From Pseudomonas sp. AB6 (lineage in GTDB: Bacteria; Pseudomonadota; Gammaproteobacteria; Pseudomonadales; Pseudomonadaceae): DNA of 64,000 bases. The number at the start of each line of letters is the position of its first letter. Positions within the stretch are counted from its first letter, which is position 1. This document shows positions 14,304 to 58,480 of the stretch, one piece after another. The stretch lies in NCBI RefSeq assembly GCF_034314105.1, contig NZ_JAVIWJ010000001.1:1303501-1367500 (forward strand), read 5' to 3'. Under the pieces are notes generated by a model. It was not told the DNA's origin. It searched no databases and worked only from the letters and a program-made list of their open reading frames with translations. The position numbers were made by a program, and so were the translations under genes.

Positions 14304-14377
14304 GGCCGAGTAGCAAAATGGTTATGCAGCGGATTGCAAATCCGCCTACGCCGGTTCGATTCCGACCTCGGCCTCCA
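14304..14377 (+). tRNA. tRNA-Cys (GCA)
   Basis: A full cloverleaf: acceptor GGCCGAG/CTCGGCC, anticodon stem GCGGATT..., loop TTGCAAA with anticodon GCA at 14336-14338, T-loop GGTTCGATTCC, discriminator T and encoded CCA at 14375-14377. Confidence 0.97.
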
Positions 14378-14386
14378 TCATAAATA

Positions 14387-14420
14387 AGCTCCGTAGATCC
14401 ATGATTTACGGAGCTTTTTA
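14387..14420 (+). terminator. Hairpin terminator after tRNA-Cys
   Basis: AAGCTCCGTA pairs perfectly with TACGGAGCTT across a ten-base loop, followed by a T-rich tail. It separates tRNA-Cys from tRNA-Leu. Confidence 0.8.
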
Positions 14421-14516
14421 TTAGGCTACATCAGCAAGACTTTGTCGCATCTTGCTGACCCGGTAAGCTTGCTTCACCGAGAAGGGATGTATATATTCCC
14501 TGCTCTTGGCGCTACC

Positions 14517-14603
14517 GCCCGAATGGCGAAATTGGTAGACGCAAGGGACTTAAAATCCCTCGTTCGTAAGGACGTGCCGGTTCGACCCCGGCTTCGGGCA
14601 CCA
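14517..14603 (+). tRNA. tRNA-Leu (UAA), prophage integration site
   Basis: Class II tRNA with acceptor GCCCGAA/TTCGGGC, long variable arm, anticodon TAA at 14551-14553, T-loop GGTTCGACCCC and encoded CCA at 14601-14603. Its last 58 bases are repeated at 59017-59074. Integration therefore left the tRNA intact on the integrase side. Confidence 0.97.
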
Positions 14604-21188: not shown

Positions 21189-21974
21189 TTAATTCAGCTC
21201 TGGCATATTCAGAACTTCAAGCAGCGCATCGAGCTTGCTCTCGTAAATGTGCGGCTGAACTTCCAACTGATTCGCTGGATTAGTTGCGTTCTTGCCATAG
21301 GTTTTGCCGGTGTCTGTCAGCGCCCAATACTCTTTGACGCCCCTGCTCTTGCTGGGCCGCTGCTTGCGCTCAACCAGTCCAGCAGCTTGCATCGCCAAGT
21401 AAACTTTGCGGGACGTTGTCGGCAGTTTAAACTTCGTGATGAGCGTACCAATAGCAGCAGTCGTGTGGCTGCTGTCGTCACCGTCCGGTGCATCAATTGC
21501 GTAAACCGGTAGCAAGTCAGCTTGGCCGATCTTCGCTGCATATTTTTGATACATTCCCAAAGTTGCGGACGGCGGTAAATTCAGGGTGCGGGACATTGAC
21601 TCAATCAGGATAGTTGCATCGTTAGCGCTGGGTGTTGGCGCTTGAATAACGGTGTAAGTCCCGGTGCGACGAAGCGTCGGCAGCAGATCGTCGAACACCC
21701 ACGATTCAAACTCTTGCGCGGCAGGCAGGGTGCTGTTAATGATCAGCCTCAGCGTGTCGCCCTCCGAAAGAACTCGTGCCTCTTGGCTGCGACCTATGCT
21801 GTCGAGGATGGGGTAGCGTTTCGCGACCCCACGACAATGACGACCCATCGCGTCACTTTGGTTTGCATAACCAAGAACATCGCAAACATCTTTACCAACA
21901 AACCATGGCGTGCCGTCGTCTTCAGTGACGACGCGCACCTGGGCCTTACGAAAATTGAAAAGCGATACGTTCAT
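21189..21974 (-). CDS. BRO-family antirepressor protein
   Basis: A 261-residue protein with an N-terminal BRO domain: VRVVTEDDGTPWFVGKDVCDVLGYANQSDA, RVLSEGDTLRLIINSTLPAAQEFESWVFDDLLPTLRRTG. The C-terminal part (GTLITKFKLPTTSRKVYLAMQAAGLVERK) is a second, winged-helix-like DNA-binding segment. Such proteins inactivate or compete with phage repressors. It follows the LuxR-type gene and a small coupled frame. Confidence 0.88.
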   Translation of the reverse strand: MNVSLFNFRKAQVRVVTEDDGTPWFVGKDVCDVLGYANQSDAMGRHCRGVAKRYPILDSIGRSQEARVLSEGDTLRLIINSTLPAAQEFESWVFDDLLPTLRRTGTYTVIQAPTPSANDATILIESMSRTLNLPPSATLGMYQKYAAKIGQADLLPVYAIDAPDGDDSSHTTAAIGTLITKFKLPTTSRKVYLAMQAAGLVERKQRPSKSRGVKEYWALTDTGKTYGKNATNPANQLEVQPHIYESKLDALLEVLNMPELN

Positions 21975-22508: not shown

Positions 22509-23255
22509 TCACCAGAACAATGATGACCAGAACACCTTTCCTAAAATTTTGATCTTCTGCTCGCTGACCTCTCCCTGATCAAATTCCTCATCCAAAAAAT
22601 CTTCACGATTGAAGCACCTTAGGCGTAAACCACCTCCAGGGAGACGGAAAACAATCCGGAGACGTAGCTGCCCTGCGTGATCTAAGGCATAAACCAGCCC
22701 ATCCGCTACCGCTACATCCTTCGTATCTATACAAGCAACGCTACCATCCTGCAGCAGTGGTTTCATGCTATTGCCTTTAACGTCGATGCATCGAGCATAA
22801 CGCGGTAGAACCCCGGCTTTATCGAGGGCTGCCCTGCTGAAGGTGAAGGTTCTCCAATCAATATCTTCTACCGATGTTTCTCCTGTGGTCTCGTTTTTGA
22901 CTACTTCTTGGAGATACCTCAATGCCACAGCGTCACGATCAAAAGTCTGCTTTCCGATGGTTTCATTGTACCTGTCGAGTTCTGCAAGTTCATCGACCGG
23001 GACGTTGCTAGACGGCGTCAGAAAACCTGTGTCCCCGAACGGTTCAAGCAAAACTGAATCTATAAGGAAGCGAGAGTCAATCTGAAGAACTTCCGCTATT
23101 TTCTGGAAGATCTTCGGCCTGGGCTTAGCGCGCCCCGATTCCCAAGCCTGAACCGATTGAGGTGTGATGCCCAGCTGGCGCGCCAACTCCGATTGGTTGA
23201 ATCCAGCAGCTCGCCTGCTTTGCGAAATTATTTCAGCGATAGTTTTCATAGCCAT
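22509..23255 (-). CDS. CI-type prophage repressor (XRE HTH plus S24 domain)
   Basis: A 248-residue protein. The N-terminal HTH (about 5-60) reads SQSRRAAGFNQSELARQLGI, TPQSVQAWESGRAKP. The S24/LexA-like domain has the nucleophile Ser163 in VKGNSMKPLLQDG. At the place of the usual catalytic Lys (VKRL-type motif) it has Arg200 in GQLRLRIVFRL. Self-cleavage may thus be impaired, making induction dependent on an antirepressor. It is divergent from the Cro-like gene, and operator-like sites flank it. Confidence 0.92.
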   Translation of the reverse strand: MAMKTIAEIISQSRRAAGFNQSELARQLGITPQSVQAWESGRAKPRPKIFQKIAEVLQIDSRFLIDSVLLEPFGDTGFLTPSSNVPVDELAELDRYNETIGKQTFDRDAVALRYLQEVVKNETTGETSVEDIDWRTFTFSRAALDKAGVLPRYARCIDVKGNSMKPLLQDGSVACIDTKDVAVADGLVYALDHAGQLRLRIVFRLPGGGLRLRCFNREDFLDEEFDQGEVSEQKIKILGKVFWSSLFW

Positions 23256-34716: not shown

Positions 34717-35065
34717 AGTCAAGGAAGGCGAAACGGTCGAGCAGGCTACGACGCGCATCTTGATTGCGATTGGCGCGGATATGAATGTCGACGAGGCAAA
34801 GCGGGTTAAGGAAAACTATCTAGCTCTGCGTGAGCAACTGGAATATGACCGCGAAGCTCGCTTAGTTGTCGCTGTCGAGGACGTGATCCGGGCGGTGGGT
34901 GTGGAATACGCCAGGGTGCGCAGTCGCCTGTTGTCTATTCCATCGGAGCACGCTCCTCGTATCCACCGCCTGAAGACCGTATTGGAGATACAAGACGCGC
35001 TGCACGGAATTATTGTCGAAGCGCTTGAGGAGTTGACCCGTGATCGAGATGGGATCAGCACCTGA
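34487..35065 (+). CDS. Terminase small subunit (Nu1-like)
   Basis: A 192-residue protein. The N-terminal winged HTH reads NQSEFAALHGVSRKTVTKWK, DRGWLVFEGKELNVDASNLL, like lambda Nu1. The C-terminus (ENYLALREQLEYDREARLVV and IVEALEELTRDRD) is the coiled region that contacts the large subunit. It should bind the packaging site; the GGTAAC cluster overlaps its 5' part. It overlaps the large-subunit gene by 26 bp. Confidence 0.85.
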   Translation: MNQSEFAALHGVSRKTVTKWKDRGWLVFEGKELNVDASNLLIAKYRRDGIEVVTQADLGNNSNTGPAPVTRASARVTVKEGETVEQATTRILIAIGADMNVDEAKRVKENYLALREQLEYDREARLVVAVEDVIRAVGVEYARVRSRLLSIPSEHAPRIHRLKTVLEIQDALHGIIVEALEELTRDRDGIST

Positions 35066-37034
35066 AGGACGTCGGTACGCCGAGGGCTACACTGCTCTGC
35101 AAGCTGGTTTGTTTGATGCGCGTCGTCGAAATATTCAGCCGCCGCCTAAGTTAAGCCTCAGTCAGTGGGCTGATCGCCACGCGATGCTTTCCCCGGAAAC
35201 AAGCGCGCAGACCGGACGTTTCCATGCGTTCCCTTATCAAAACGGGATCATGGATGCAATCACAGACCCAACCGTAGAAATGGTTTCTGTTCAGAAGTCG
35301 GCACGGGTTGGATACACCAAAATCATGGACCACGTCGCCGGGTTTCACATTCACCAGGATCCGGCCCCTATCCTTGTGGTTCAGCCACGGGTAGAGGATG
35401 CCGAGGACTATAGCGTTACCGAAATTGAGCCGATGTTGCGCGACACGCCTGTGCTTGCCGAAATCACAGGCGACCTGAAACGGAAGGACTCGCGGCAAAA
35501 GATCGCCAAGCGAATCTTCCGTAACGGCGCCTCGATTTCATTCGTGGGCGCAAACAGCCCAGGCGGGTTTCGTCGGATAACTGCTCGCGTGGTGCTGTTC
35601 GATGAAGTCGACGGCTATCCGATAATGGGCGCCGGTAAGGAAGGCGACCAAATCAAGCTGGGCATCAAGCGCACCGAGTCGTTCTGGAATCGAAAGATCA
35701 TCTTGGGCAGTACGCCCACGGTGAAGGGCGAGAGCCGAATTGAAAAAAGCTACGCCAACAGTGACCAGCGAAGATATTACGTGCCCTGCCCACATTGCGG
35801 CGAGTACCAGGTTCTTGAGTGGGGCGGTCCTGACACGCCTTACGGGATGAAGTGGGATAAAGACGAAAACGGGATTGGCATTCCGGAAAGCGTGTTCTAC
35901 GTGTGCCGGGCTACCGCCTGCATGATCTTCGAAACCGATAAAGAAGAAATGATTGGTCGCGGAGAGTGGCGAGCCGCCAAGCCGTTCAAGGGGCATGCGG
36001 GATTTCACATTTGGGCGGCTTATAGCCTGTTTGTGAACGCTGCCTGGCGAAACCTGGTTGCCGAGTGGCTAGAGGTCAAAGACGACCCACTCATGCGCCA
36101 GACCTTCGTCAACCTGGTGCTTGGCGAAACCTATGAGGATCGGGGTGATCGCGCCTTACAGGAAAGCAAGCTCACCGAGCGATGCGAGGTGTGGGGCTCA
36201 GAGGTACCCGACGGAGTCGCAGTGATAACGGTGGGAGTAGATACCCAGGATGATCGCTTTGAATGCGAAGTGGTCGGCTGGGGCACCAACGAGGAAAGCT
36301 GGTCCATAGATTTCGAGGTTATCCATGGCGACATGGAAACCCCTGATATCTGGAATCGGCTGGATGCTTACCTGAAAAGAATCTGGTACCGGGCAGATGG
36401 TCGCGGCTTTGAAATCATGGCGGTGTGTCATGACTCTGGCGGCCACCACTCGCAAAAAGTCTATGACTTTTCCAAAGCGCGAATCGGTCGTCGGATATGG
36501 GCGATCAGGGGTGAGTCGGCGGTGGGCGGTAAGCGCTCACCGGTATGGCCAACCAAGACACCCAGCCGCCGTAATAAATCAGCGTTCAGGCCCGTGATAA
36601 TTGGCGTGAACGCCGCGAAAGATTCGGTTAGGTCGCGGCTCCACCAGGTCGAACACGGTCCGGGCTATATGCACTTCCCGACCGAAAGAGACATTAACTA
36701 TTTCGCGCAACTTACCTCTGAGCGGTCCGTACGCAAGACGTCTGGCGGACAGACCTACCGAGTGTGGGAATTGCCACCGGGCCGGGCAAACGAGGCGCTC
36801 GACTGTCGCGTTTATGCCTATGCAGCGCTTTGCGGTCTTTTGCACGCGGGCCTGAAGCTGAACAAGCGTGCCGAAGAAGTTAACGCCTCGATTGGTATCC
36901 CCGTCTTCCGGCCGCCACTGACTGATGAGGTCGATGCGCAACCTGTTGCGGCTCAAAAACCCGAAAAGACCGGACCATCGATCACACAGCCCGACGCGCC
37001 TGTACGCAACAAGCCTAAACGCCGCCTGGCTTAA
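35040..37034 (+). CDS. Terminase large subunit (lambda GpA family)
   Basis: A 664-residue protein close to GpA length. N-terminal SLSQWADRHAMLSPETSAQTGRF; ATPase with the Walker-A-like VQKSARVGYTKI and Walker B VVLFDEVDGYP; CPHCGEYQVLEWGG (zinc-like pair); nuclease part with the acidic residue in VGVDTQDDRFE. It cuts and translocates concatemeric DNA. GTG 35040 is preferred because GAGGAG lies eight bases upstream; ATG 35049 is an alternative. Confidence 0.95.
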   Translation: MIEMGSAPEGRRYAEGYTALQAGLFDARRRNIQPPPKLSLSQWADRHAMLSPETSAQTGRFHAFPYQNGIMDAITDPTVEMVSVQKSARVGYTKIMDHVAGFHIHQDPAPILVVQPRVEDAEDYSVTEIEPMLRDTPVLAEITGDLKRKDSRQKIAKRIFRNGASISFVGANSPGGFRRITARVVLFDEVDGYPIMGAGKEGDQIKLGIKRTESFWNRKIILGSTPTVKGESRIEKSYANSDQRRYYVPCPHCGEYQVLEWGGPDTPYGMKWDKDENGIGIPESVFYVCRATACMIFETDKEEMIGRGEWRAAKPFKGHAGFHIWAAYSLFVNAAWRNLVAEWLEVKDDPLMRQTFVNLVLGETYEDRGDRALQESKLTERCEVWGSEVPDGVAVITVGVDTQDDRFECEVVGWGTNEESWSIDFEVIHGDMETPDIWNRLDAYLKRIWYRADGRGFEIMAVCHDSGGHHSQKVYDFSKARIGRRIWAIRGESAVGGKRSPVWPTKTPSRRNKSAFRPVIIGVNAAKDSVRSRLHQVEHGPGYMHFPTERDINYFAQLTSERSVRKTSGGQTYRVWELPPGRANEALDCRVYAYAALCGLLHAGLKLNKRAEEVNASIGIPVFRPPLTDEVDAQPVAAQKPEKTGPSITQPDAPVRNKPKRRLA

Positions 37035-43641: not shown

Positions 43642-43863
43642 ATGTACGTTTATGCCTCTCAAGGGTTGCTAGTTCGCGACCCTGTGAAACAAGATTTTTT
43701 GCCCGTCGAAGGCCGCGAGGTTCCCGACAGCGCTTTTTACTGGATTCGGCGCCTGGGTTGCGGTGATGTAACGCTGACCCCGCCCGCAACCTCGGCACCC
43801 GCCGCGATTGTGCTCGATTCGCGCGTCACGAAAACCACCCCAACTGATGGGAGCGATAGCTAA
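43642..43863 (+). CDS. DUF2635 small tail protein (Mu gp38-like)
   Basis: A 73-residue protein: YVYASQGLLVRDPVKQDFLP, VEGREVPDSAFYWIRRLGCGDV, the DUF2635 signature that precedes the Mu sheath gene. TAATG overlap with the sheath. Confidence 0.85.
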   Translation: MYVYASQGLLVRDPVKQDFLPVEGREVPDSAFYWIRRLGCGDVTLTPPATSAPAAIVLDSRVTKTTPTDGSDS

Positions 43864-45341
43864 TGCCCGTTCCATTCAATAACATCCCGACGAACAACCG
43901 GGTTCCGCTTTTTTATGCGGAGGTCGATAACTCCCAGGCCAACAGCGGGGCGCAGACTCAGAAAACGTTGATCATTGGTCAGATAACCGCAGCCGGTAAC
44001 GGCATAGTCAACGTTCCAGTGCTTGGGCAGGGCGTTACTGACGCCCAAGCTAAAGGTGGACAGGGTTCCATGCTTGCGCTGATGACTGCGACCTACGTTG
44101 CCAATGACAGTTTCGGCGAGATCTGGTTTTTGCCTCTGGCAGACGCAGCGGGTGGGGTCGCAGCTACCGGCACGCTGCTTGTTGCCGGACTGCCCACTGC
44201 CACAGGCGTTATTTCGCTGTACATCGCCGGGCAACTCGTCAGCCTGGTCGTAACGGCAGCCGAAGCCCCGAGTGCTATCGCCACAGCTTTGGCGGCACTC
44301 GTCAATGCGACTCCAGATTTGCCGGTTACTGCGACTGCGACCACGGCAACAGTGACGTTCACCGCCAAGAACAAGGGTATGACGGGTAACGACATCGATA
44401 TCCGGTTGAATTATCTCGGAACGGTGAATGGGCAGGCGATCCCTGTTGGCTTGACGCTGACAATTACCGCAATGACGGCTGGCGCAACCAACCCCGTGCT
44501 GGACACGGCGCTCAGCAACCTGGCCGACCAGGCATTTGACTTCATCGTTAGCCCCTACACCGATACAGCTTCGCTGGATTCGCTCAAAGCGTTGCTCAAC
44601 GACAAAACGGGGCGGTGGGGTTATATCTCGCAGATCTATGGCCACGTGTTCTCGTCGTTGCGCGGCACGCTATCAACGTTGGCGACTGCGGGCAACGCCC
44701 GTAACAACCAGCATGAAACTGTACTGGGTGTTTATGATTCCCCGTCTCCACCCTGGTCATGGGCGGCAGGTTCGGCTGGCGCAGCGGCAGTTGCATTGCG
44801 TGCCGATCCGGGCCGCCCGCTGCAAACTTTGGTCGTGAGCGGCGTACTCGCACCACCGCTTATTTCGCAATTTGACGTGGGCGAGCGCAATACCTTGCTT
44901 TGGGATGGTATTTCCACGTTCACCGTTGCGAATGACGGCACGGTCGCGATTGAAAACATGATTACGACTTACCAAAAGAACAGTTTTGGTTCCCCCGATG
45001 ACAGTTATCTGCAAGTCGAAACGCTGTTTCTGCTGATGTTCGTGCTGCGCGCTCAGCGGGCCTTGGTAACTTCGAAGTACGCACGGGTCAAGTTAGCGGC
45101 TAACGGCACTCGCTTCGCGCCTGGCAGTGCAATCGTTACTCCGAACATCATTCGGGCCGATCTAATTGCTCAGTACCTGACGATGGAATTCAACGGGTAC
45201 GTCCAGGATTCGGCTGCCTTTGCCAAAGCCTTGATTGTCGAAAAGAACAGCCTAAATCCGAACCGGGTCGATGTTCTCTCGCCAGCCACGCTGATCAACC
45301 AGTTGCGCATTTTTGCGCTGCTCGAACAATTCCGCCTGTAG
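43863..45341 (+). CDS. Contractile tail sheath protein (Mu gpL-like)
   Basis: A 492-residue protein: MPVPFNNIPTNNRVPLFYAE, VDNSQANSGAQTQKTLIIGQ at the N-terminus, FIVSPYTDTASLDSLKALL, VLGVYDSPSPPWSWAAGSAG, and a C-terminal IEKNSLNP-like VEKNSLNPNRVDVLSP, typical of Mu-type sheaths. It shows the tail is contractile, so the phage is a myovirus. Confidence 0.94.
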   Translation: MPVPFNNIPTNNRVPLFYAEVDNSQANSGAQTQKTLIIGQITAAGNGIVNVPVLGQGVTDAQAKGGQGSMLALMTATYVANDSFGEIWFLPLADAAGGVAATGTLLVAGLPTATGVISLYIAGQLVSLVVTAAEAPSAIATALAALVNATPDLPVTATATTATVTFTAKNKGMTGNDIDIRLNYLGTVNGQAIPVGLTLTITAMTAGATNPVLDTALSNLADQAFDFIVSPYTDTASLDSLKALLNDKTGRWGYISQIYGHVFSSLRGTLSTLATAGNARNNQHETVLGVYDSPSPPWSWAAGSAGAAAVALRADPGRPLQTLVVSGVLAPPLISQFDVGERNTLLWDGISTFTVANDGTVAIENMITTYQKNSFGSPDDSYLQVETLFLLMFVLRAQRALVTSKYARVKLAANGTRFAPGSAIVTPNIIRADLIAQYLTMEFNGYVQDSAAFAKALIVEKNSLNPNRVDVLSPATLINQLRIFALLEQFRL

Positions 45342-46167: not shown

Positions 46168-48201
46168 GTGGCCAACAGCTTCACGATCACGATCAACGCC
46201 GTGGATAAAGCTACGGCGACCGTGCGCAAGGTCAACGACGCTATCGGCCGCATGACCCGCCCATTCGAAAACGTGGGCAACTCCTTTAAGAGTCTGGGTC
46301 GCGAACTGGGTTTTGAGAAGATCGGCAAGAACCTGGGCAACATTGGTATGCAAGCGGGCAGTGCCGCTCGCAGCATCGGCAACATCGTTGCTCCCATGGC
46401 CGCCATTACGGGCCTAGGGTCGGTGGCGGGCGTTGCTGCACTTGCCGACAGCTGGGCCCACCTCGGCCGATCCATCGACAACAGCTCTCGCGGTATCGGC
46501 GTCTCGGCGGGACAGCTTCAGGGTTTCCAGGGGGCGGCAAAGCTTCTTGGCATAGATGCCTCGACGACGACCTCGAGCCTCGACGGTTTGGCGACCACGA
46601 TGCAGGATGCTCAGTGGGGCCGAAATCAAGGCGCGATGGTTATGTTTAGCCAGCTCGGCATAGGTTTAAAGAAAACCAAGGATGGTGCAAAAGACGTGAT
46701 TGGCGAATTCAAGGCGATTGCTGACGCCATTTCCAAGAAAACCGACCCCCAAGTGCAGGCGCTTATTGCGAACACTTTAGGATTAGGTGCGATGTTGCCG
46801 TTTCTGCGGGAGGGATCGGCAGGGATCGAACGCTACGAAGGCATGGTTAAAAGTCTTGGCTATGTGATGGGCGATGACGCGGTAAAGCGCGGCAAAGAAT
46901 TCTCAATGAGTCTTGCGGGGCTGGGCATCGCTGTCGACGGGGTTAAAAATTCCATCGGCGATGCGTTGATTCCCGCGATGAAGCCGCTGATCGACCAGTT
47001 CAGCGTTTGGCTGGCGACCAATCGCGAGTTGATCGCGACCGACGTTGGTGAGTGGGCGAAAGGATTTGCGACTTGGATCAACAGTATCAACTGGACGAAG
47101 GTCGGCGAGGGCATCGTTAAGTTTGGCGAAGGCATCGGCAAGGTCGTTGACTGGATGGGTGGGTGGCAGAACGCCGCTCTCCTGGTAGCTGGCGTAATGA
47201 ACGCTGGACTGATTGTCAGCGTAGCTTCACTCGGTGGAAGCTTGTTGACGGCGGGCATCGGAATTGTGGCTTTCACCGGTCTTTTGAGCGGCTGGAAGGT
47301 CGCCGCTCTTGAGGCGGGCGCCGCTACCGACGCTGCCGCAGTATCAGGCGGCGGCCTGCTGGGCGCCATCGGTGCGGGTATTTCTACTATCGCAGCCGGA
47401 CTCTTATCGCTGCTTTACTCCCCCTCGCTGAACACGGGGGAGGATAAAGAAATTGCGCGTATTCGACAGGCTCAAGGTTTGCCGCCAGCGGTCCCACAAA
47501 CAGCTGACCAAGCTTCCCACGAAACAGCTGTATCCGGTGCTTGGAAAAAGCTGCAGGGCACTGACAAAGATCAATCGACCCTTGCGATGGATTATTTCAA
47601 GTCTGTAGGGTGGACGCCGCAACAAGCGGCGGGAATCGTCGGCAACGGCATAGCCGAAAGCAACCTTGATCCAAAAGCAACGGGTGATTGGAAAGTAACC
47701 GGGCCAGAGGCCAGAGGCATCTTTCAGTTGCACGCCGATCGGCAAAAGGATTTTAAGGACTGGGCCGGTTTCAAAATCACTGATGATCGAGCAGATAGTC
47801 TGAAGCAGTATGAGTTTGCCAACTACGAGTTAACCAAAGGTAAGGAAGCTAAGGCGGGGAGGGCCCTGAGAAGAACTGCCGACGCAGAATCGGCAGGCGA
47901 AGTAGGTTCGCGAAAATGGTTGAGGCCGGGGCTTTTAGAAGAAGATAAGGCCCGCGAGGCTATTTCACGCGGGGCGCTGGCCAATCAGTTAGATTTACCG
48001 CCGCTCTCGGCCGCGCCAGCCGGGCCATATACCAAGCCTGCCGATGCTGGTGAGCAAGGTAGCGGCGGCAGCAACGGCACCGTGAAAGTCGAAATTGAAC
48101 ACAAGAACATGCCGGAAGGAACAAAGGTCAACGTTAAAACTGAAGGCAACGTTCAGGCGTCTAGCCGTATTGCATATTCTGGAGTGGGGTCTATCGCATG
48201 A
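46168..48201 (+). CDS. Tail tape measure protein with tail lysozyme domain
   Basis: A 677-residue protein. N-terminal tape-measure pattern (TITINAVDKATATVRKVNDA, IGRMTRPFENVG); hydrophobic middle (VAGVMNAGLIVSVASLGGSL). About 460-590 is a phage tail lysozyme-type domain: FKSVGWTPQQAAGIVGNGIA, ESNLDPKATGD, ARGIFQLHADRQKDFKDWAG, with a likely catalytic Glu in AESNL. It determines tail length and may locally cut peptidoglycan during entry. GTG start with AAGGAG upstream. Confidence 0.92.
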   Translation: MANSFTITINAVDKATATVRKVNDAIGRMTRPFENVGNSFKSLGRELGFEKIGKNLGNIGMQAGSAARSIGNIVAPMAAITGLGSVAGVAALADSWAHLGRSIDNSSRGIGVSAGQLQGFQGAAKLLGIDASTTTSSLDGLATTMQDAQWGRNQGAMVMFSQLGIGLKKTKDGAKDVIGEFKAIADAISKKTDPQVQALIANTLGLGAMLPFLREGSAGIERYEGMVKSLGYVMGDDAVKRGKEFSMSLAGLGIAVDGVKNSIGDALIPAMKPLIDQFSVWLATNRELIATDVGEWAKGFATWINSINWTKVGEGIVKFGEGIGKVVDWMGGWQNAALLVAGVMNAGLIVSVASLGGSLLTAGIGIVAFTGLLSGWKVAALEAGAATDAAAVSGGGLLGAIGAGISTIAAGLLSLLYSPSLNTGEDKEIARIRQAQGLPPAVPQTADQASHETAVSGAWKKLQGTDKDQSTLAMDYFKSVGWTPQQAAGIVGNGIAESNLDPKATGDWKVTGPEARGIFQLHADRQKDFKDWAGFKITDDRADSLKQYEFANYELTKGKEAKAGRALRRTADAESAGEVGSRKWLRPGLLEEDKAREAISRGALANQLDLPPLSAAPAGPYTKPADAGEQGSGGSNGTVKVEIEHKNMPEGTKVNVKTEGNVQASSRIAYSGVGSIA

Positions 48202-49628
48202 GTTTGTTATCGGATCTTATTCAAATTGCCGGTGACTCCAATCGCACTTGGGCCCAATCACTAAATCAGGCGTCGTTCCGTGGTGTTCCATTTGCGGTGT
48301 ATGGCGGCGAGGCCCGATTCGGGCGCCGCCAGGCCGTGCATGAATACCCTGGAGCGGACAAGCCCTATATAGAAGACATGGGCCGCTCGACGCGCCGCAT
48401 TCGTATGACCGGGTTTCTGGTAACAGACAGTGCTATCTACGGGGGCGGCAATGTGCTGGCGCAACGTGACGCATTAGTTGCGGCAGCGGAAAAACAGGGG
48501 CCTGGCGCTTTAATGCACCCGACGCTTGGCGCACTTAAAGTCAGCCTCATGGACCAGGGGCTGTCAGTAATCGAGCGCTGGGACATGGGGCGCTACTTCG
48601 AAATCAGTTTCATATTCATTGAATCGGGCAATCGTTATTTCCCCAGCATCAAAACGTCTACCGGCAGCCTGCTAGATAAGTTGGCTGCTGCCCTGGGCCT
48701 GTCCTCGGTATTGGACTTCGCACGCAAGGTGATTGGAGGCGTAACGGCCGTACTGAATGTTGTCGAGGGCGTCATAAAGTTCGGCAAAGCTATTGTTAGC
48801 ATGGTGTTTGGCGTGATTGGTGCTTTCAAAGCGCTGGTTGGCCGTATCACCCGCGACGTACGCAGCATCACCAGCTTGGGCGGTCTTTTAACTGGGAATT
48901 ACGGTCGATATGCGAATGGAAACGTAAGCAGCGCGCTAATAGCGAGTAAAACAGCACGGAACAGCAGCGCAACTATGGCTGACTTGATCGCGAAGAACAC
49001 AGCTAATCGCGCCGCCGTCGATAGCGCGATGAGCACTCTGGTTAATGCCGCATCAAATCTCGATGTGAGTAGCGCGGCGACTTTTACCAGTGCGGTCCAA
49101 GCGGTTATGAGTGCACTCGCTGCGGGTATCGCTGACCCTGGTGACGCCATTGTTTTACTCGGCCCCTTGGCGACTTTTTCTCCGGCAGCATTTACCGGGG
49201 GCGGGGCTATTGGCGCAGCGTCAGCAATCGCTCAAAACGCAACGGCAGCATTACTGCGCAGAACAGCATTAGCGGAAATTGGAAAAGTAGTGGCTGCCTA
49301 TGTACCCACCTCATACGACCAAGCTATCAGCACAATGACGGCCGTTACGGCTTTCATTGATGCCGAGATATTGGTTGCGGGCGATGCCGGTGATGACGAT
49401 AGCTACAGTGCGTTGATTGCATTGCGACAAGGCATTGTAAGCGCCCTGACCACAACCGGCGCCACGCTGCCAAATCTTGAAACGTTCACCTTCAATGCGC
49501 CGATATCGGCGCTGGTGATGGCGAACAGGCTTTACCAAGACCCAAGTCGAGCAGATGAGTTAATTCAGCAGGCAAACCCGGTTCATCCAGCATTTATGCC
49601 GACTTCGTTGAAGGCCTTGGCAACTTAA
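48198..49628 (+). CDS. DNA circularisation / baseplate protein (Mu gpN-like)
   Basis: A 476-residue protein: WAQSLNQASFRGVPFAVYGG, EARFGRRQAVHEYPGADKPY, IEDMGRSTRRIRMTGFLVTD, the DNA_circ_N signature. C-terminal Ala-rich helices. In Mu-type tails it belongs to the tail tip or baseplate region. Confidence 0.92.
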   Translation: MSLLSDLIQIAGDSNRTWAQSLNQASFRGVPFAVYGGEARFGRRQAVHEYPGADKPYIEDMGRSTRRIRMTGFLVTDSAIYGGGNVLAQRDALVAAAEKQGPGALMHPTLGALKVSLMDQGLSVIERWDMGRYFEISFIFIESGNRYFPSIKTSTGSLLDKLAAALGLSSVLDFARKVIGGVTAVLNVVEGVIKFGKAIVSMVFGVIGAFKALVGRITRDVRSITSLGGLLTGNYGRYANGNVSSALIASKTARNSSATMADLIAKNTANRAAVDSAMSTLVNAASNLDVSSAATFTSAVQAVMSALAAGIADPGDAIVLLGPLATFSPAAFTGGGAIGAASAIAQNATAALLRRTALAEIGKVVAAYVPTSYDQAISTMTAVTAFIDAEILVAGDAGDDDSYSALIALRQGIVSALTTTGATLPNLETFTFNAPISALVMANRLYQDPSRADELIQQANPVHPAFMPTSLKALAT

Positions 49629-49640
49629 TACTCGCCAAGG

Positions 49641-50024
49641 TCATTTGGCCGGCACAACGTCTGACTGCATCATCCATTCAATATCGTGAGGCATGGACGG
49701 GTTGTTGATCATCGGGATTGACACCTGAACAAGTTGTTGGGGACCTGCTGGAATTTGCCAAGTGTACCGCTTGATAACATCAAACTTCACGGTCGGAGAA
49801 ATTGGCGAGCAACCACCCTGAGTCATGATTTTTAACAGATTGGGGTTGGCGGGGTCGTGGAGTATGTAGTCGGACGCTTCGGGCACTGCCGCCATATCTG
49901 AACAAGCAAGCGCCTCGCTACTTTTGGAATGATACAGCCCCGTTTCTTGCCCGCTATTGGCGTGGGCGCTCACAGCTACGGCAAATAAAATCCCTGCACA
50001 GCTAAAAGATATTAATAATTTCAT
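49641..50024 (-). CDS. Exported moron protein, unknown (127 aa)
   Basis: It lies on the opposite strand inside the tail operon, convergent with gpN and divergent from gpP. A signal peptide (MKLLISFSCAGILFAVAVSAHA) is followed by a beta-like mature part with two Cys (LACSDM, GGCSPI). GAGGATAAAG precedes ATG 50024. A periplasmic lysogen-expressed protein is likely; superinfection exclusion or fitness function is possible, not shown. Confidence 0.65.
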   Translation of the reverse strand: MKLLISFSCAGILFAVAVSAHANSGQETGLYHSKSSEALACSDMAAVPEASDYILHDPANPNLLKIMTQGGCSPISPTVKFDVIKRYTWQIPAGPQQLVQVSIPMINNPSMPHDIEWMMQSDVVPAK

Positions 50025-50047
50025 CTTTATCCTCGGTGGTGTGGTGT

Positions 50048-51142
50048 ATGTCTGAAGATCTAACCGTAACTATTGGAACAACGGCGATTACGGGCTGGAC
50101 AGATATTCGTGTCACTCGCGGAATTGAGCGAGTGCCAAGTGATTTTAGTATTGGCATGACAGAATTACATCCTGGTGAGCTAGCAGAAATCGGTATCGAG
50201 CCAGGATCTGCGTGCGCAGTTAAGCTCGGGGATAATCTGGTTGTCACGGGTTATATAGATCACTTCATCCCAAGCTTTGGTCCCAGCGATCATTCCATTC
50301 GGTTGTCGGGTCGCTCAAAGTGTGCAGATCTGGTGGATTGTGCTGCGGAGTGGCCGGGCGGCCAGATCAGCAACTCCAATGTTCTCGGAATCGCCCAGAA
50401 ACTAGCCTCGGTTTATGGCCCTCTTGTCGATGGAAAGGCAGACGGGATTCAAGTCACTGCCAGCTTGAGCTACGACAAGTTGCCGATACTCCCGCAGATC
50501 AACGTCATGCTCGGAGAATCTGCTTTCGAGATTATTGACCGCGTAGCCAGGAGCTCAGCCGTCTTAGCGTATGACTTGCCAGATGGCGGTCTATTTTTAT
50601 CTGAGGTGGGCGTCGAAACCGCAGCCAGTGGCTTCGCCGAGGGCGTGAACGTTCAAAGTGCTTATATTGATTACTCGGCAAATCTTAGATATTCGGAATA
50701 CGACGCCTATATTCAATCCGTACAAGCTTTTATGGATTTGGGCGACGGCGGCAATCTTATTGCTTCGGTATCCGACCCTAACTGTAAGCGGCACCGGAAA
50801 ATGGTGATTATTTCCGAGGGCGGAGGCATGGGGAACGAAACCGCTGCTCTGCGCGCACACTGGGAAGCCGCCCGCAGAGCGGGAAGATCGTTGGTAGTGC
50901 GGCTCGTTACAGACGGTTGGCGAGATCAGTCGGACGCCTTATGGGAGCCCAACACATTGGTTCCGGTCTCATTGCCGAGACTTAACCTGAATAGTGTGCA
51001 CTTGCTGATCACGGAAGTTACATTTTTGCGGTCTCCGGGAAGGGGTACTACAGCGGAAATAACACTGATGCCGCCCGAGGCGTTCAAACCACAACCTATA
51101 AATTTGACGCCGTTTTTTGGCGACGTCCAAGGGCATCCATGA
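50048..51142 (+). CDS. Baseplate hub protein (Mu gpP / gp44-like)
   Basis: A 364-residue protein: [76 protein letters not shown]. This is the Mu gpP/late-control-D type hub. Start ATG 50048. Its upstream region overlaps the moron's start. Confidence 0.92.
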
Positions 51143-51711
51143 ATGACGCTCAAGGAATTATGGAACGGCTATGGCGACGTGTTCAGTTAATGTCTAGCTG
51201 GGGTCGAGTGACATTTAGTGACGACTCTAAGTCGGCACAAATACTCCAGATAAAACTAAATAATTCTGAAACCCGCGACGACACGCCGCGCATCGCTGAG
51301 TTCGGCCTTACTTCGGTGCCGCCGAACGGCTCCGATGTACTAGTGGCATTTCTCGGTGGCGATCGATCAAAAGGTGTCGTGATCGCAACCGGGCATCAGG
51401 CAAGCCGTCCGCTGGGATTAGCCGCTGGCGAAACCATGCTGTATGACCTTCAAGGTAAAAGCGTCTACCTCACCGCAGCTCATGGCATTGTCATTGAGGC
51501 GAGGGGCGCACCGGTCACGGTCAACAATGCGACCACTGTAACCATCAATGCTGCTAATTCGGTGGTGATGAATACCCCGCTGCTTCATGTCACCGGCGAC
51601 ATCCATGCCGATGGCAATGTCAGCGACAACGTTCGCAGCATGGCTGGCGACCGAACGATTTATAACGGCCATATCCACGGGAGCGGCCCAGTGCCGACAC
51701 AACAACAATGA
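51139..51711 (+). CDS. Baseplate spike protein (Mu gp45-like)
   Basis: A 190-residue protein: [20 protein letters not shown], then an OB-fold and repeated beta strands ([20 protein letters not shown]). It ends [10 protein letters not shown], where an HxH metal-binding tip is typical of membrane-piercing spikes. Overlaps both neighbours (ATGA). Confidence 0.9.
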
Positions 51712-52145
51712 GCGATATCAGTACCGTTTGGAACGTCGATACCGGGATGGGCGACTGGTCCGTTAGCGGTGGCGCGCTTGCAAGCGGCGATGATCTGGAG
51801 ACGGCCGTGTTGATCAGCGTATTTTCTGATCGATTAGCCGGTGACGATGATGTCCTGCCAGACGGCAGCACAGATCGACGCGGTTTCTGGGGCGATGACG
51901 ATGTTCCGCTCGGGTCGAAGCTCTGGTTGCTTGATCGCTCTCGCCTCACTACAGATGTCGCCAACACTGCCAAAATTTATATTGAAGAATCTTTGAAGTG
52001 GATTATTGACGACGGAGTTGCCAGCAGCGTGAAAGTAACCATGTCCATAGCGCCGCCCAGGACTTTGGGGGCGCTGGTCGTCATTACGCGCGGTGATGGA
52101 ACTGTAGTCAGTCTCAGCTTTAGCAGGCTATGGCAGCAAAGTTAA
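51708..52145 (+). CDS. Baseplate protein (Mu gp46-like)
   Basis: A 145-residue protein: [66 protein letters not shown], the GP46/gp25-type lysozyme-like wedge. Normally gp47 follows at once; here a reversed gene intervenes. Confidence 0.92.
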
Positions 52146-53152
52146 CTTGCTTTATAGCTTGTCAAGTCGGTCTCCATAATGTGGAAGTATCCAGAAAGTA
52201 TATAATCTGACCCATCTTCTGCCTTTACGTGTATTTCTAATAAGGCTTCTTGTTGCTGCCCGGCAGGGACGACAAATGATTCATGGCCAACGACTACTAT
52301 GCTACTCGCCTGTTTTTTATCTAAAATGTCAATGCATTCATTCTCTAGTGATAATTTAAAGGCGTAATCTGGGTAATGCCTGATGGAATCATTTATTTCC
52401 GCTGTTACAAGCCTGTCCGTGCATGCCCACTTTCCTGATAGTGCGCGCTTTTCAATGTCGCTTTTTGTAGAGGTCGATTTTATTTTAGTAGATGGGTCGG
52501 TTATTAAATTGCTCTGATCAAATGCATCAGAGTCGCTAGAAGCCACCGGGGAGTACATTGCTGCAACTGGTGGGCTTTTACTATTAGGCTCATACATTTG
52601 AGAGAGATGTATTCCATAGGTTGGGCCATAGAGAGACCCATACTTGGATACGCTGCCCTCTTGATACAGTGGGCCGCCTAAGCCCTTTAATATTTTTGAA
52701 AACTCGCCGCTAAAATAAACCGGATCACCTTCCTTGAAATTCGCCACCTCTTTAAAAATTACAGAGGTCGAAGGGATGTTATCTTGCTTGTAAGTAACGC
52801 CTTTAGTTGATTCTAATTCGATACTTACGAAGTCGCCACTTGATGAGGCCATGATACGCACGACTTTCCCGTGCCAGCCATCAATCTTGAAACCGAATGA
52901 TTTCCAAAATGAACTCTGCTGCTCGTTAGCATCGTTGAATATCTTGTTTTGAATTAATTCATTCTTTGCGTTTTTGTATTCATCTGATTTACCAGATCGA
53001 ATTGATTCGAATTGGTATTGATTTGCTGGCTCGTCGATTACTACCTGATCCGCTTCTGATCCGTGATGGAAAAAAGCATAAATGGTTAATGCTACGACAA
53101 TTGCTATTAGCCCCTGAACAGAACCTTTTCCTGTTTGCGTATCGCGCTTCAT
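52142..53152 (-). CDS. Membrane-anchored moron protein, unknown (336 aa)
   Basis: Opposite-strand gene between gp46 and gp47; its stop overlaps the gp46 stop in a shared TTAA. The N-terminus has one membrane segment (SVQGLIAIVVALTIYAFFHH), the rest would be outside the cytoplasm: GFKIDGWHGKVVRIMASSSG, FKEGDPVYFSGEF, and a C-terminal ISLENECIDI-like part (KLSLENECIDILDKKQAS). Codon use is visibly more A/T-rich than the tail genes, a sign of separate origin. GGAAGAAG precedes ATG 53152. No family recognised. Confidence 0.75.
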   Translation of the reverse strand: MKRDTQTGKGSVQGLIAIVVALTIYAFFHHGSEADQVVIDEPANQYQFESIRSGKSDEYKNAKNELIQNKIFNDANEQQSSFWKSFGFKIDGWHGKVVRIMASSSGDFVSIELESTKGVTYKQDNIPSTSVIFKEVANFKEGDPVYFSGEFSKILKGLGGPLYQEGSVSKYGSLYGPTYGIHLSQMYEPNSKSPPVAAMYSPVASSDSDAFDQSNLITDPSTKIKSTSTKSDIEKRALSGKWACTDRLVTAEINDSIRHYPDYAFKLSLENECIDILDKKQASSIVVVGHESFVVPAGQQQEALLEIHVKAEDGSDYILSGYFHIMETDLTSYKAS

Positions 53153-53294
53153 TTCTTCTTCCTGAAAAAACCGCCAGTGTAGATGAGCTGGTGGTTTGAG
53201 TGCTAAAGCTATTTCACTGCTTGCGTCTCGATTGGACAGGGCGGCTATTTAGATCAGGTCCGCTACATAGATGCGCCGCTAAAAACTCAACCAG

Positions 53295-53317
53295 ACCTCG
53301 CGTTTGCGGGGTTTTTT
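53295..53317 (+). terminator. Hairpin terminator before the baseplate J-like gene
   Basis: ACCTCGC-GTTT-GCGGGGT (one wobble pair) followed by six T on the + strand, 22 bp before the gp47 ATG. It came perhaps with the moron, or limits transcription into gp47. Confidence 0.7.
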
Positions 53318-53338: not shown

Positions 53339-54466
53339 ATGCCATTTCCAAGGCCCAAGCTCTCGGACCTGCGGGCACAGGTCGCCGCTGATATCACCTC
53401 GGGGCTGCCATCTGCCGACGGGCTCCTTCGGTTTTCCAACCTGCAAATCACGGGTAAAGCTGTGGCCGGAATGGCCCACCTAAATTTCGGATATCTAGAC
53501 TGGATCGCGAAACAAGGGGTGCCATTCACGTCGTCCGGTGAGTTTTTGTTTGCGTGGGCAGCGATGAAAAAGATTTTTCAAAATCCCGCTCAGGCTGCGG
53601 TCTTGACGGTGTCTCTCCCTGGCACCCCAGGCACCCCGCTCAATATCAACACCTCGCTTTCACGTAGCGATTCGACCACTTACACCGTTCTTGCAACAGT
53701 GACGGTTGGCGTAAGCGGATTCGCAGTCGTCCAGGCGCGAGCAGATGTGCCGGGTACTGCGGGAAATGCGGCCCCAGGTACGTTGATGAGCTTGGGAATA
53801 TCAATTCCAGGCATTCAATCGAGCGGTACTGTAACCGGAACTGTCACCACCGGTGATGATCAGGAGACCGAGAAATCTGTTTTCAACCGAATGATGGCGG
53901 CTTATCAAAGCACGCCGAACGGCGGATCGTTCAACGACTATGTGAACTGGGCGCTTGCGGTTCCGGGCGTTACGCGGGCGTGGTGCACACCCAATGGATT
54001 CGGCACGGGCACGGTCGTGGTGTTCGTGATGCTCGACAATGCCAATGCGCCCTATCAGGGATTTCCGCAAGGGACGAACGGAATTTCAGTAAGCGACAAC
54101 CGCGCCACATCCGGAAATCTCGCGACCGGTGATCAGCTTGTAGTGGCCAACAGTATTTTTCCACTGCAGCCCGTGACCGCTATGGTCTATATCTGCGCAG
54201 CACTGCCTAATCCGACTAATTTCACCATTACCGGGCTCACTAACGCATCTACGATAACGCGGGCAGCCATCGCCGCTGCAATCACCGAGATTTTTGTAGA
54301 GCAGGGCGTGCCGAAATCGGACGGCTCGATTTCCGCGCTATCCGATATAGATTCCGCAATTGCAGCAATCGCGTCGACTAGCGGATTTGTAATCACCTCC
54401 CCGGTGGCAAACATCCCCAACATAGCTGGCTACTTACCCACACTGGGCGTGATTACTTTCCCGTGA
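53339..54466 (+). CDS. Baseplate J-like protein (Mu gp47)
   Basis: A 375-residue protein: PFPRPKLSDLRAQVAADITS, VPGTAGNAAPGTLMSLGIS, TGDDQETEKSVFNRMMAAYQ, STPNGGSFNDYVNWALAVPG VTRAW. This is the Baseplate_J family, the wedge that triggers contraction. Confidence 0.94.
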   Translation: MPFPRPKLSDLRAQVAADITSGLPSADGLLRFSNLQITGKAVAGMAHLNFGYLDWIAKQGVPFTSSGEFLFAWAAMKKIFQNPAQAAVLTVSLPGTPGTPLNINTSLSRSDSTTYTVLATVTVGVSGFAVVQARADVPGTAGNAAPGTLMSLGISIPGIQSSGTVTGTVTTGDDQETEKSVFNRMMAAYQSTPNGGSFNDYVNWALAVPGVTRAWCTPNGFGTGTVVVFVMLDNANAPYQGFPQGTNGISVSDNRATSGNLATGDQLVVANSIFPLQPVTAMVYICAALPNPTNFTITGLTNASTITRAAIAAAITEIFVEQGVPKSDGSISALSDIDSAIAAIASTSGFVITSPVANIPNIAGYLPTLGVITFP

Positions 54467-57332: not shown

Positions 57333-57944
57333 ATGCCGATTACACAGCAGCAGTTGCTGCATATCCTCCCGAACGCCGGCCCAGTTGCCGGCGTTTTTGT
57401 ATCTGCATTAAACACGGCGATGGGTAAGTACCAGATCATCACGCCGTTACGGATCGCGGCGTTTCTCGCGCAGGCCGGGCATGAGTCGGGACAGCTTCTC
57501 CATCTAGTGGAAAACCTGAACTACGGGGCGCCGGGGTTGGTTGCGACGTGGCCAACGCGGTTCACCCCTTCGCTTGCTGCTCAAGTCGAGCGTCAGCCGG
57601 AGCAGATCGCGAACATCGTGTATGCGTCGCGCATGGGTAATGGCCCGACCGCAAGCGGTGATGGTTGGCGATTTAAGGGTCGAGGGCTGTTCCAGGTAAC
57701 CGGCTGGACGAATTACCAATCGTGCGGCTCGGCGCTGGCGCTGGACCTGCTTACTCACCCCGAGTTGCTTGAACAGCCAATCTATGCGGCGCTATCGGCG
57801 GCGTGGTACTGGGCGAGCAATGGCCTGAACACGCTGGCAGATGCCGAACAGTTCACGCAGATTACGCAAAAAATCAACGGCGGCCAGGTCGGTGCCGCTG
57901 ACCGGGTTGCTCTCTATAACACTGCGATGGGGGTTCTTGCATGA
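57333..57944 (+). CDS. Endolysin, glycoside hydrolase family 19
   Basis: A 203-residue chitinase-like lysozyme: LRIAAFLAQAGHESGQLLHL with the catalytic Glu, ASRMGNGPTASGDGWRFKGR, GLFQVTGWTNYQ, WYWASNGLNTLAD. It cleaves peptidoglycan in lysis. No signal peptide, so it needs a holin. A terminator-like hairpin lies within its codons 14-22. Confidence 0.93.
   Translation: MPITQQQLLHILPNAGPVAGVFVSALNTAMGKYQIITPLRIAAFLAQAGHESGQLLHLVENLNYGAPGLVATWPTRFTPSLAAQVERQPEQIANIVYASRMGNGPTASGDGWRFKGRGLFQVTGWTNYQSCGSALALDLLTHPELLEQPIYAALSAAWYWASNGLNTLADAEQFTQITQKINGGQVGAADRVALYNTAMGVLA
57374..57398 (+). terminator. Terminator-like hairpin inside the endolysin gene
   Basis: CGCCGGC-N6-GCCGGCG is a perfect 7-bp GC stem followed by five T. 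It lies about 40 bases into the coding region. Confidence 0.5.
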
Positions 57945-58480
57945 CATCAATCTACGCAAAGATTGGCGGCTACGTGCTGGCCATCATTTTGGTGTTTGGT
58001 GCGCTGTATGGCGCCTATCGCCACGGCGAAACCCTCGCAAACTCTGAATGGCAGGCTAAGTGGGATGCCGAGGTCGCCACGCAGGCGCTGGCCAAGGCGA
58101 AAGCCGAAGAAGACGCTCGCGCTATCGAGCTCAGTCGAATCAACAATAACCAGCAGGTGCAAGCTCATGCGATTCAATCAAACGTTGCTGAAAAAACTGA
58201 TCATGCTGCCAATGTTAGCGTTGTTGGCAGCGTGCAGCTCGCAACCACAAAACTGGCAGCCGACCCAAGTAGCTGCACCGGCCATCCCGCCGCTGCCGCT
58301 AGAAGCCCGACAACCAATCATGCCGCAATGGTGCTCTCCGACCTGCTCACGCGCGCTGACAAGCGAGCAGCAGAGTTGGCTTCCTTTGCTGACCGTTCCC
58401 GAATAGCGGGTCTGGCTTGCGAGGCGTCTTATGAAGGGCTGACGGTGAATCAGGGCTCACCTCAAAAAGCACAAAATTGA
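57941..58480 (+). CDS. Rz-like i-spanin
   Basis: A 179-residue protein with one N-terminal membrane segment (IGGYVLAIILVFGALYGAYR), then a charged coiled coil (AKWDAEVATQALAKAKAEED) into the periplasm. It completes lysis by joining inner and outer membranes with Rz1. It overlaps the endolysin stop by four bases. Confidence 0.88.
   Translation: MTSIYAKIGGYVLAIILVFGALYGAYRHGETLANSEWQAKWDAEVATQALAKAKAEEDARAIELSRINNNQQVQAHAIQSNVAEKTDHAANVSVVGSVQLATTKLAADPSSCTGHPAAAARSPTTNHAAMVLSDLLTRADKRAAELASFADRSRIAGLACEASYEGLTVNQGSPQKAQN
58167..58406 (+). CDS. Rz1-like o-spanin lipoprotein, nested in Rz
   Basis: In the +1 frame inside Rz: MRFNQTLLKKLIMLPMLALL, lipobox LLAACSS, then a Pro-rich part (QVAAPAIPPLPLEARQP), the hallmark of Rz1. 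79 residues, wholly embedded in the Rz gene. Confidence 0.85.
   Translation: MRFNQTLLKKLIMLPMLALLAACSSQPQNWQPTQVAAPAIPPLPLEARQPIMPQWCSPTCSRALTSEQQSWLPLLTVPE

What the first reader, a model, noticed from the sequence alone, without database searches (positions are those of the whole stretch)
52142..53152. Reversed, AT-rich membrane-anchored gene inside the baseplate operon
Mu-type gp46 and gp47 are normally adjacent. Here a 336-residue opposite-strand gene of different base composition sits between them, its stop overlapping the gp46 stop exactly. It has one N-terminal membrane helix and a large extracytoplasmic domain with no family I recognise. Lysogen-expressed morons placed in tail operons often encode superinfection exclusion or defence, so this is the best candidate here for an undescribed system.
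Basis: partly seen in the sequence, partly recalled or inferred. Interest (0 to 1): 0.6.

Follow-up and report, generated by a model that had tools for sequence, protein, structure and literature searches.

The report
Reverse-strand accessory gene in prophage tail
A dormant virus in a bacterial chromosome carries, backwards inside its tail-building genes, an extra gene for a protein probably anchored in the cell's inner membrane; such extra genes often protect the cell from other viruses, but what this one does is untested.

Summary
An intact 336-codon, 41.6% GC gene lies on the minus strand (52142-53152) between gp46 and gp47 of a Mu-like baseplate operon (52-57% GC). Ten relatives of the same phage group lack it: seven have 58-70 nt between gp46 and gp47, and three share a different 545-nt filler holding another minus-strand ORF. 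The gene is therefore an insertion ('moron') in a variable slot.

It has no relatives in any collection searched. It encodes an N-terminal signal anchor and a C-terminal domain that holds its only two cysteines. That domain probably matches a second minus-strand exported protein in the same operon (49641-50024).

Interference with another phage's DNA entry (superinfection exclusion) is the best single guess, on location and topology alone. No defence family matches, and no sigma-70 promoter was found in the 53153-53290 leader. The finding is a new, orphan member of a known kind (phage morons). Calling it an undescribed defence system is not supported beyond its context. Both structure models were too poor to assign a fold.

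The parts
52142..53152 (-). The moron gene: 336 aa, signal anchor at about residues 10-28, middle region of unknown fold (about 80-190), linker, C-terminal two-cysteine domain (about 240-330)
   Evidence: no family hit
52145..52435 (-). 3' part of the moron gene (residues 240-336): Cys-pair domain (C244, C273) that probably matches the product of 49641-50024
53153..53284 (-). 5' leader of the moron: hairpin AAACCACCAG..CTGGCGGTTTTTT directly before AGGAAGAAGAA-ATG; no sigma-70 consensus promoter found
53293..53314 (+). Terminator-like hairpin and T run just upstream of gp47; a hairpin with different stem sequence is kept at this place in most relatives, with or without an insert, so the insert lies between the gp46 stop and this element
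51708..52145 (+). gp46 baseplate wedge gene, intact upstream neighbour; its stop overlaps the moron stop by 2 nt
53339..54466 (+). gp47 / Baseplate_J gene, downstream neighbour
49641..50024 (-). Second reverse-strand accessory gene (127 aa, Sec-type signal ending AHA, two cysteines in the mature part), between the DNA_circ_N gene and gp44; likely homologue of the moron's C-terminal domain

Best explanation
The gene is a prophage accessory gene (moron) carried in a variable slot between gp46 and gp47. It is written against the late genes, so it can be made in the lysogen while the tail operon is silent. Its product is held in the inner membrane by an N-terminal signal anchor, with about 300 residues in the periplasm ending in a small disulfide-bonded domain. 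The most likely job is superinfection exclusion: in the periplasm it would meet the tail tip or DNA conduit of an incoming phage and stop DNA entry. Shown here: the insertion, the orientation, the intact reading frame, the single hydrophobic segment, and empty or differently filled sites in relatives. Inferred: export, disulfide, lysogenic expression. Guessed from analogy: the exclusion function.
For: Insertion: relatives have empty 58-70 nt sites (L004/L037, L005, L008, L009, L028, L030, L031) or an unrelated 545-nt filler with its own minus-strand ORF (L003/L036, L006, L007). Foreign composition. Topology: one N-terminal hydrophobic segment, and both cysteines lie in the C-terminal domain. 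Second slot: five different protein families, all minus-strand and with N-terminal signal-like segments, occupy the gap between the DNA_circ_N gene and gp44. The moron's C-terminal domain matches the window's own second-slot protein: Smith-Waterman z 6.3, 0 of 3000 shuffles; it is the best non-self match of the moron domain among 2922 ORFs, and the moron is the best non-self match of the second-slot profile among the window's 649 ORFs. Literature: accessory loci antisense to lytic genes are typical morons (PMC7067206). Single membrane proteins such as SieA and HK97 gp15 block DNA injection (PMC10883804).
Against: No homologue, no defence-library match, no usable structure (pLDDT 32.5), and no sigma-70 promoter found upstream. 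Nothing tests expression or phage resistance. At 336 aa it is much larger than HK97 gp15 (small, from general knowledge). The link to the second-slot protein is only suggestive: hhalign P 0.033, HMM E 0.11 over 649 ORFs.
Confidence: 0.42

Rival explanations
1. A moron with an envelope role unrelated to phage exclusion: a periplasmic membrane-anchored protein that alters stress tolerance, surface properties or fitness of the lysogen, like the general class of lysogenic-conversion genes.
For: Same insertion, orientation and export evidence. The exported proteins of the second slot differ widely between relatives, which fits niche-specific functions as well as it fits exclusion.
Against: No family match that would point to such a function.
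Confidence: 0.3
2. The minus-strand transcript, not the protein, matters: it runs on into gp46 and gp45 as antisense RNA and blocks tail synthesis by an incoming related phage, as STnc6030 is proposed to act in Salmonella prophage BTP1.
For: The genes converge with overlapping stops, and no minus-strand terminator was found in the region. Precedent in PMC7067206.
Against: A 336-codon open frame with a plausible RBS and a signal anchor is far beyond chance, so a protein is very probably made.
Confidence: 0.06
3. A late-expressed structural, chaperone or lysis component of this phage that happens to be reversed.
For: It lies inside the tail operon.
Against: Absent from ten relatives with the same baseplate operon; reverse strand and different composition; no PHROG match.
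Confidence: 0.05
4. A passenger gene without present function, recently acquired and drifting towards loss.
For: Found in one genome only; no recognised promoter.
Against: The frame is fully intact with a plausible RBS, and there is no frameshift or internal stop.
Confidence: 0.15

Closest known systems
Phage morons in general (accessory genes; e.g. Pseudomonas JBD26 Tab in the late operon, PMC10884400)
   Same: Extra gene between late structural genes, absent from close relatives, different GC, plausible lysogen expression
   Different: Protein family unrelated to any described one; own promoter not demonstrated; Tab is an 83-residue assembly inhibitor encoded between the small and large terminase genes
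HK97 gp15 superinfection exclusion protein
   Same: Moron-encoded, predicted inner-membrane protein (PMC10883804)
   Different: gp15 is small, from general knowledge; here about 300 residues follow the anchor; sequence relation not tested directly; exclusion untested
P22 SieA
   Same: Prophage inner-membrane protein, proposed to meet the injection machinery from the membrane (PMC10883804)
   Different: A different protein in a short-tailed phage; no PADLOC or PHROG match here; target untested
Accessory loci and antisense RNAs of Salmonella prophages (STMMW_20121, STnc6030; PMC7067206)
   Same: Encoded antisense to lytic genes
   Different: STnc6030 is non-coding; the present gene has a long intact frame

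Membership tests
Phage moron (accessory gene) | Gene added between two genes that are adjacent in relatives | tested here: met
   Empty 58-70 nt sites, or a different filler, in ten relatives
Phage moron (accessory gene) | Base composition unlike the surrounding phage genes | tested here: met
   41.6% against 52.1-56.5% GC
Phage moron (accessory gene) | Own promoter and terminator | tested here: inconclusive
   Simple consensus scan finds no minus-strand promoter at 53153-53290 and no minus-strand terminator after the stop; the organism's promoters may differ
Phage moron (accessory gene) | Expressed from the silent prophage | not testable with these tools
   Needs RNA-seq of the lysogen
Membrane-type superinfection exclusion protein (HK97 gp15 / SieA type, functional class) | Inner-membrane anchored protein encoded by a prophage | tested here: inconclusive
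   One strong N-terminal hydrophobic segment; localisation not shown
Membrane-type superinfection exclusion protein (HK97 gp15 / SieA type, functional class) | Blocks DNA entry of other phages | not testable with these tools
   Needs a phage challenge
Known anti-phage defence families (PADLOC-DB 2.0.0) | Match to a described defence protein model | tested here: not met
   No match up to E 5

The most novel reading that the evidence does not exclude
The two reverse-strand genes of this operon form one envelope system: a soluble periplasmic protein (49641-50024) and a membrane-anchored protein (52142-53152) that carry the same two-cysteine domain. Expressed together in the lysogen, they would block entry of related contractile-tailed phages. 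The two slots would be a fast-turnover site for exported exclusion proteins in this phage group.
Probability: 0.13. Interest if true: 0.55.

Novelty: new member of a known kind. Interest (0 to 1): 0.33.

Why it matters
If the exclusion reading is right, this gene and the second-slot genes point to fixed places in one group of Mu-tailed prophages where exported, rapidly exchanged proteins are kept. Comparing those slots would be a direct way to collect candidate entry-blocking proteins that defence catalogues do not contain. If it is an ordinary fitness moron, it adds one orphan protein to a large known class.

Tried and rejected
Profile and sequence searches of the whole protein and of its two parts against Pfam, PHROGs, NCBIfam, PADLOC, PDB sequences, phage and plasmid records, viral contigs, GTDB contigs, and genus- and class-wide genome sets gave no relative. 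The fn3_5 hit (E 0.033 for the whole protein, 0.0055 for the C-terminal part, both below the curated cut-off) and the PDB L23 hit (E 1.8) are treated as chance. Phage hit H81 (E 3) and the weak genus hits inspected (L014-L019, L043, L045, L048) look like unrelated frames or housekeeping genes.

An idea from memory that residues 85-190 form an OB-like domain (WxGxVxxI...GDPVxFSGxF) could not be backed by any search and is left as a lead.

AlphaFold2 of the whole protein failed (pLDDT 32.5). The C-terminal domain from a four-row alignment reached only 55.8. Its structure searches gave no match above background (best VIA Z 4.7 to a Nudix enzyme; no Foldseek E below 0.001) and carry no weight.

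A transposon origin was looked for: no long repeats frame the insert.

Full report
Setting. The window is part of a 5.06-Mb, 2-contig genome (window at G000:C1:1303501-1367500). The genus is not named by the tools; I take it to be Pseudomonas-like, by inference. The prophage has a CI-like repressor (22509-23255 -), an anti-repressor (21189-21974 -), a DnaB-like helicase, terminase (35040-37034 +), portal, a contractile tail with sheath (43863-45341 +), and an Rz-like spanin (57941-58480 +). The tail and baseplate operon runs on the plus strand: DNA_circ_N gene (48198-49628), gp44 (50036-51142), gp45, gp46 (51708-52145), gp47 (53339-54466), gp48.

The 336-codon frame at 52142-53152 (-) has an ATG start and a purine-rich leader AGGAAGAAGAA. 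In 1000 Markov shuffles of the spacer the longest stop-free stretch was 249 codons, against 367 observed. Its GC is 41.6%; the neighbouring tail genes have 52.1-56.5%. The stops of gp46 and the moron overlap by two bases in GTTAAC, offset by one base. gp46 itself is intact (145 aa, similar in length to relatives).

The gene is an insertion in a variable slot. In published phages with this operon (Mu, BZS1, phiNP and others) gp46 and gp47 lie within about 7-40 nt (hit coordinates). In the closest group (roughly 58-80% protein identity in the baseplate genes) the spacing is 58-70 nt in L004/L037, L005, L008, L009, L028, L030 and L031. In L003/L036, L006 and L007 a shared 545-nt filler occupies it. 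That filler holds a different 86-aa minus-strand ORF with a good RBS, matching phrog_23950 of unknown function (E 9e-28). So this place has accepted reverse-strand genes at least twice. In most of these genomes, with or without an insert, a terminator-like hairpin with a T run stands just upstream of the gp47 RBS. Its stem sequence varies between relatives but pairing is kept in most (ACCCGC/GCGGGT, TCCCGC/GCGGGA, ATCGCC../..GGCGAT; window ACCTCGC/GCGGGGT), with a weak version in L028. The insert sits between the gp46 stop and this element.

A second slot. Between the DNA_circ_N gene and gp44 the window has another minus-strand gene, 49641-50024, of 127 aa with a Sec-type signal (..AVSAHA). 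L007 carries a 51%-identical version. Other relatives carry unrelated minus-strand proteins with signal-like N-termini in the same gap: L005 (130 aa), L008/L036 (called 207 aa; probable true start at residue 43; phrog_19473, unknown function), L009 (175 aa), L031 (137 aa; a weak resemblance to the window's protein). L028 and L037 are empty.

The two genes of the window are probably related. The C-terminal 107 residues of the moron align to the second-slot protein around ACTD...C...VPAGQQQ / ACSD...C...IPAGPQQ. The score has z 6.3 (0 of 3000 shuffles) for the window protein and z 5.5 (2 of 3000) for L007; an earlier test with the full-length protein and other gap costs gave 3 and 8 of 2000. With the moron domain as query, these two are the best non-self matches among 2922 ORFs, E 0.36 and 0.82. 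A profile of the two, used as query, ranks the moron first among the other 648 ORFs of the window, E 0.11. In the larger set it ranks below two ORFs from loci that had been fetched for resembling the second-slot protein. hhalign gives P 0.033 only. The moron has only two cysteines, C244 and C273, and both fall in aligned positions. I first noticed the resemblance by eye, so these numbers are not a blind test. I put homology at about 0.75.

Topology. One hydrophobic segment (residues 10-28, mean 1.98; next best window 0.71) follows a K/R-rich start, with no evident signal-peptidase or lipobox motif after it. This reads as a signal anchor with the bulk in the periplasm, and the paired cysteines fit an oxidising compartment. 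It is inferred, not shown.

What could not be found. No relative turned up in Pfam, PHROGs, NCBIfam, PADLOC, PDB sequences, phages, plasmids, viral contigs, GTDB contigs, 198 further genus genomes or 368 class genomes. The AlphaFold2 models are too poor for fold claims. The promoter scan finds no minus-strand sigma-70 site in the leader. The leader does contain a terminator-like hairpin just before the RBS.

How it most likely works. A reverse-strand accessory gene in a late operon is typical of lysogen-expressed loci (PMC7067206). Known prophage membrane proteins such as SieA and HK97 gp15 stop DNA injection (PMC10883804). By analogy I propose that the membrane-anchored periplasmic protein blocks DNA entry of an incoming phage (0.42 for the full statement). 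An unrelated envelope or fitness role is the main rival (0.30). A functionless passenger (0.15), antisense RNA (0.06) and a virion component (0.05) are less likely.

Verdict. The interpretation as a moron is well supported; as a defence gene it rests on context alone. It is a new orphan member of a known kind, with modest interest raised by the two-slot pattern.

Noticed in passing
window 49641-50024 (-); L005:3861-4253, L007:641-1033, L008:3657-4280, L009:3768-4295, L031:1870-2283 (all -): A second slot for reverse-strand exported proteins between the DNA_circ_N tail gene and gp44, filled by five protein families across relatives and empty in L028 and L037.
   Followed up: yes
window 53293-53314 (+); L005, L008, L009, L030, L031, L036, L037 upstream of gp47: A terminator-like hairpin with a T run just before the gp47 ribosome-binding site; pairing is kept in most relatives although stem bases change (weak in L028), which is odd for a mid-operon position and may mean antitermination or mRNA processing.
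   Followed up: partly
L036:8367-8627 (L003), L006:612-872, L007:3264-3524 (-): An 86-aa minus-strand ORF (phrog_23950, unknown function) fills the gp46-gp47 slot in three relatives.
   Followed up: partly
window 53153-53215 (-): The moron leader holds a hairpin with a run of T directly before the RBS, a terminator-plus-RBS arrangement like the one before gp47 on the other strand.
   Followed up: partly
window 14304-14603 (+): tRNA-Cys and tRNA-Leu genes upstream of the prophage, a possible integration target.
   Followed up: no
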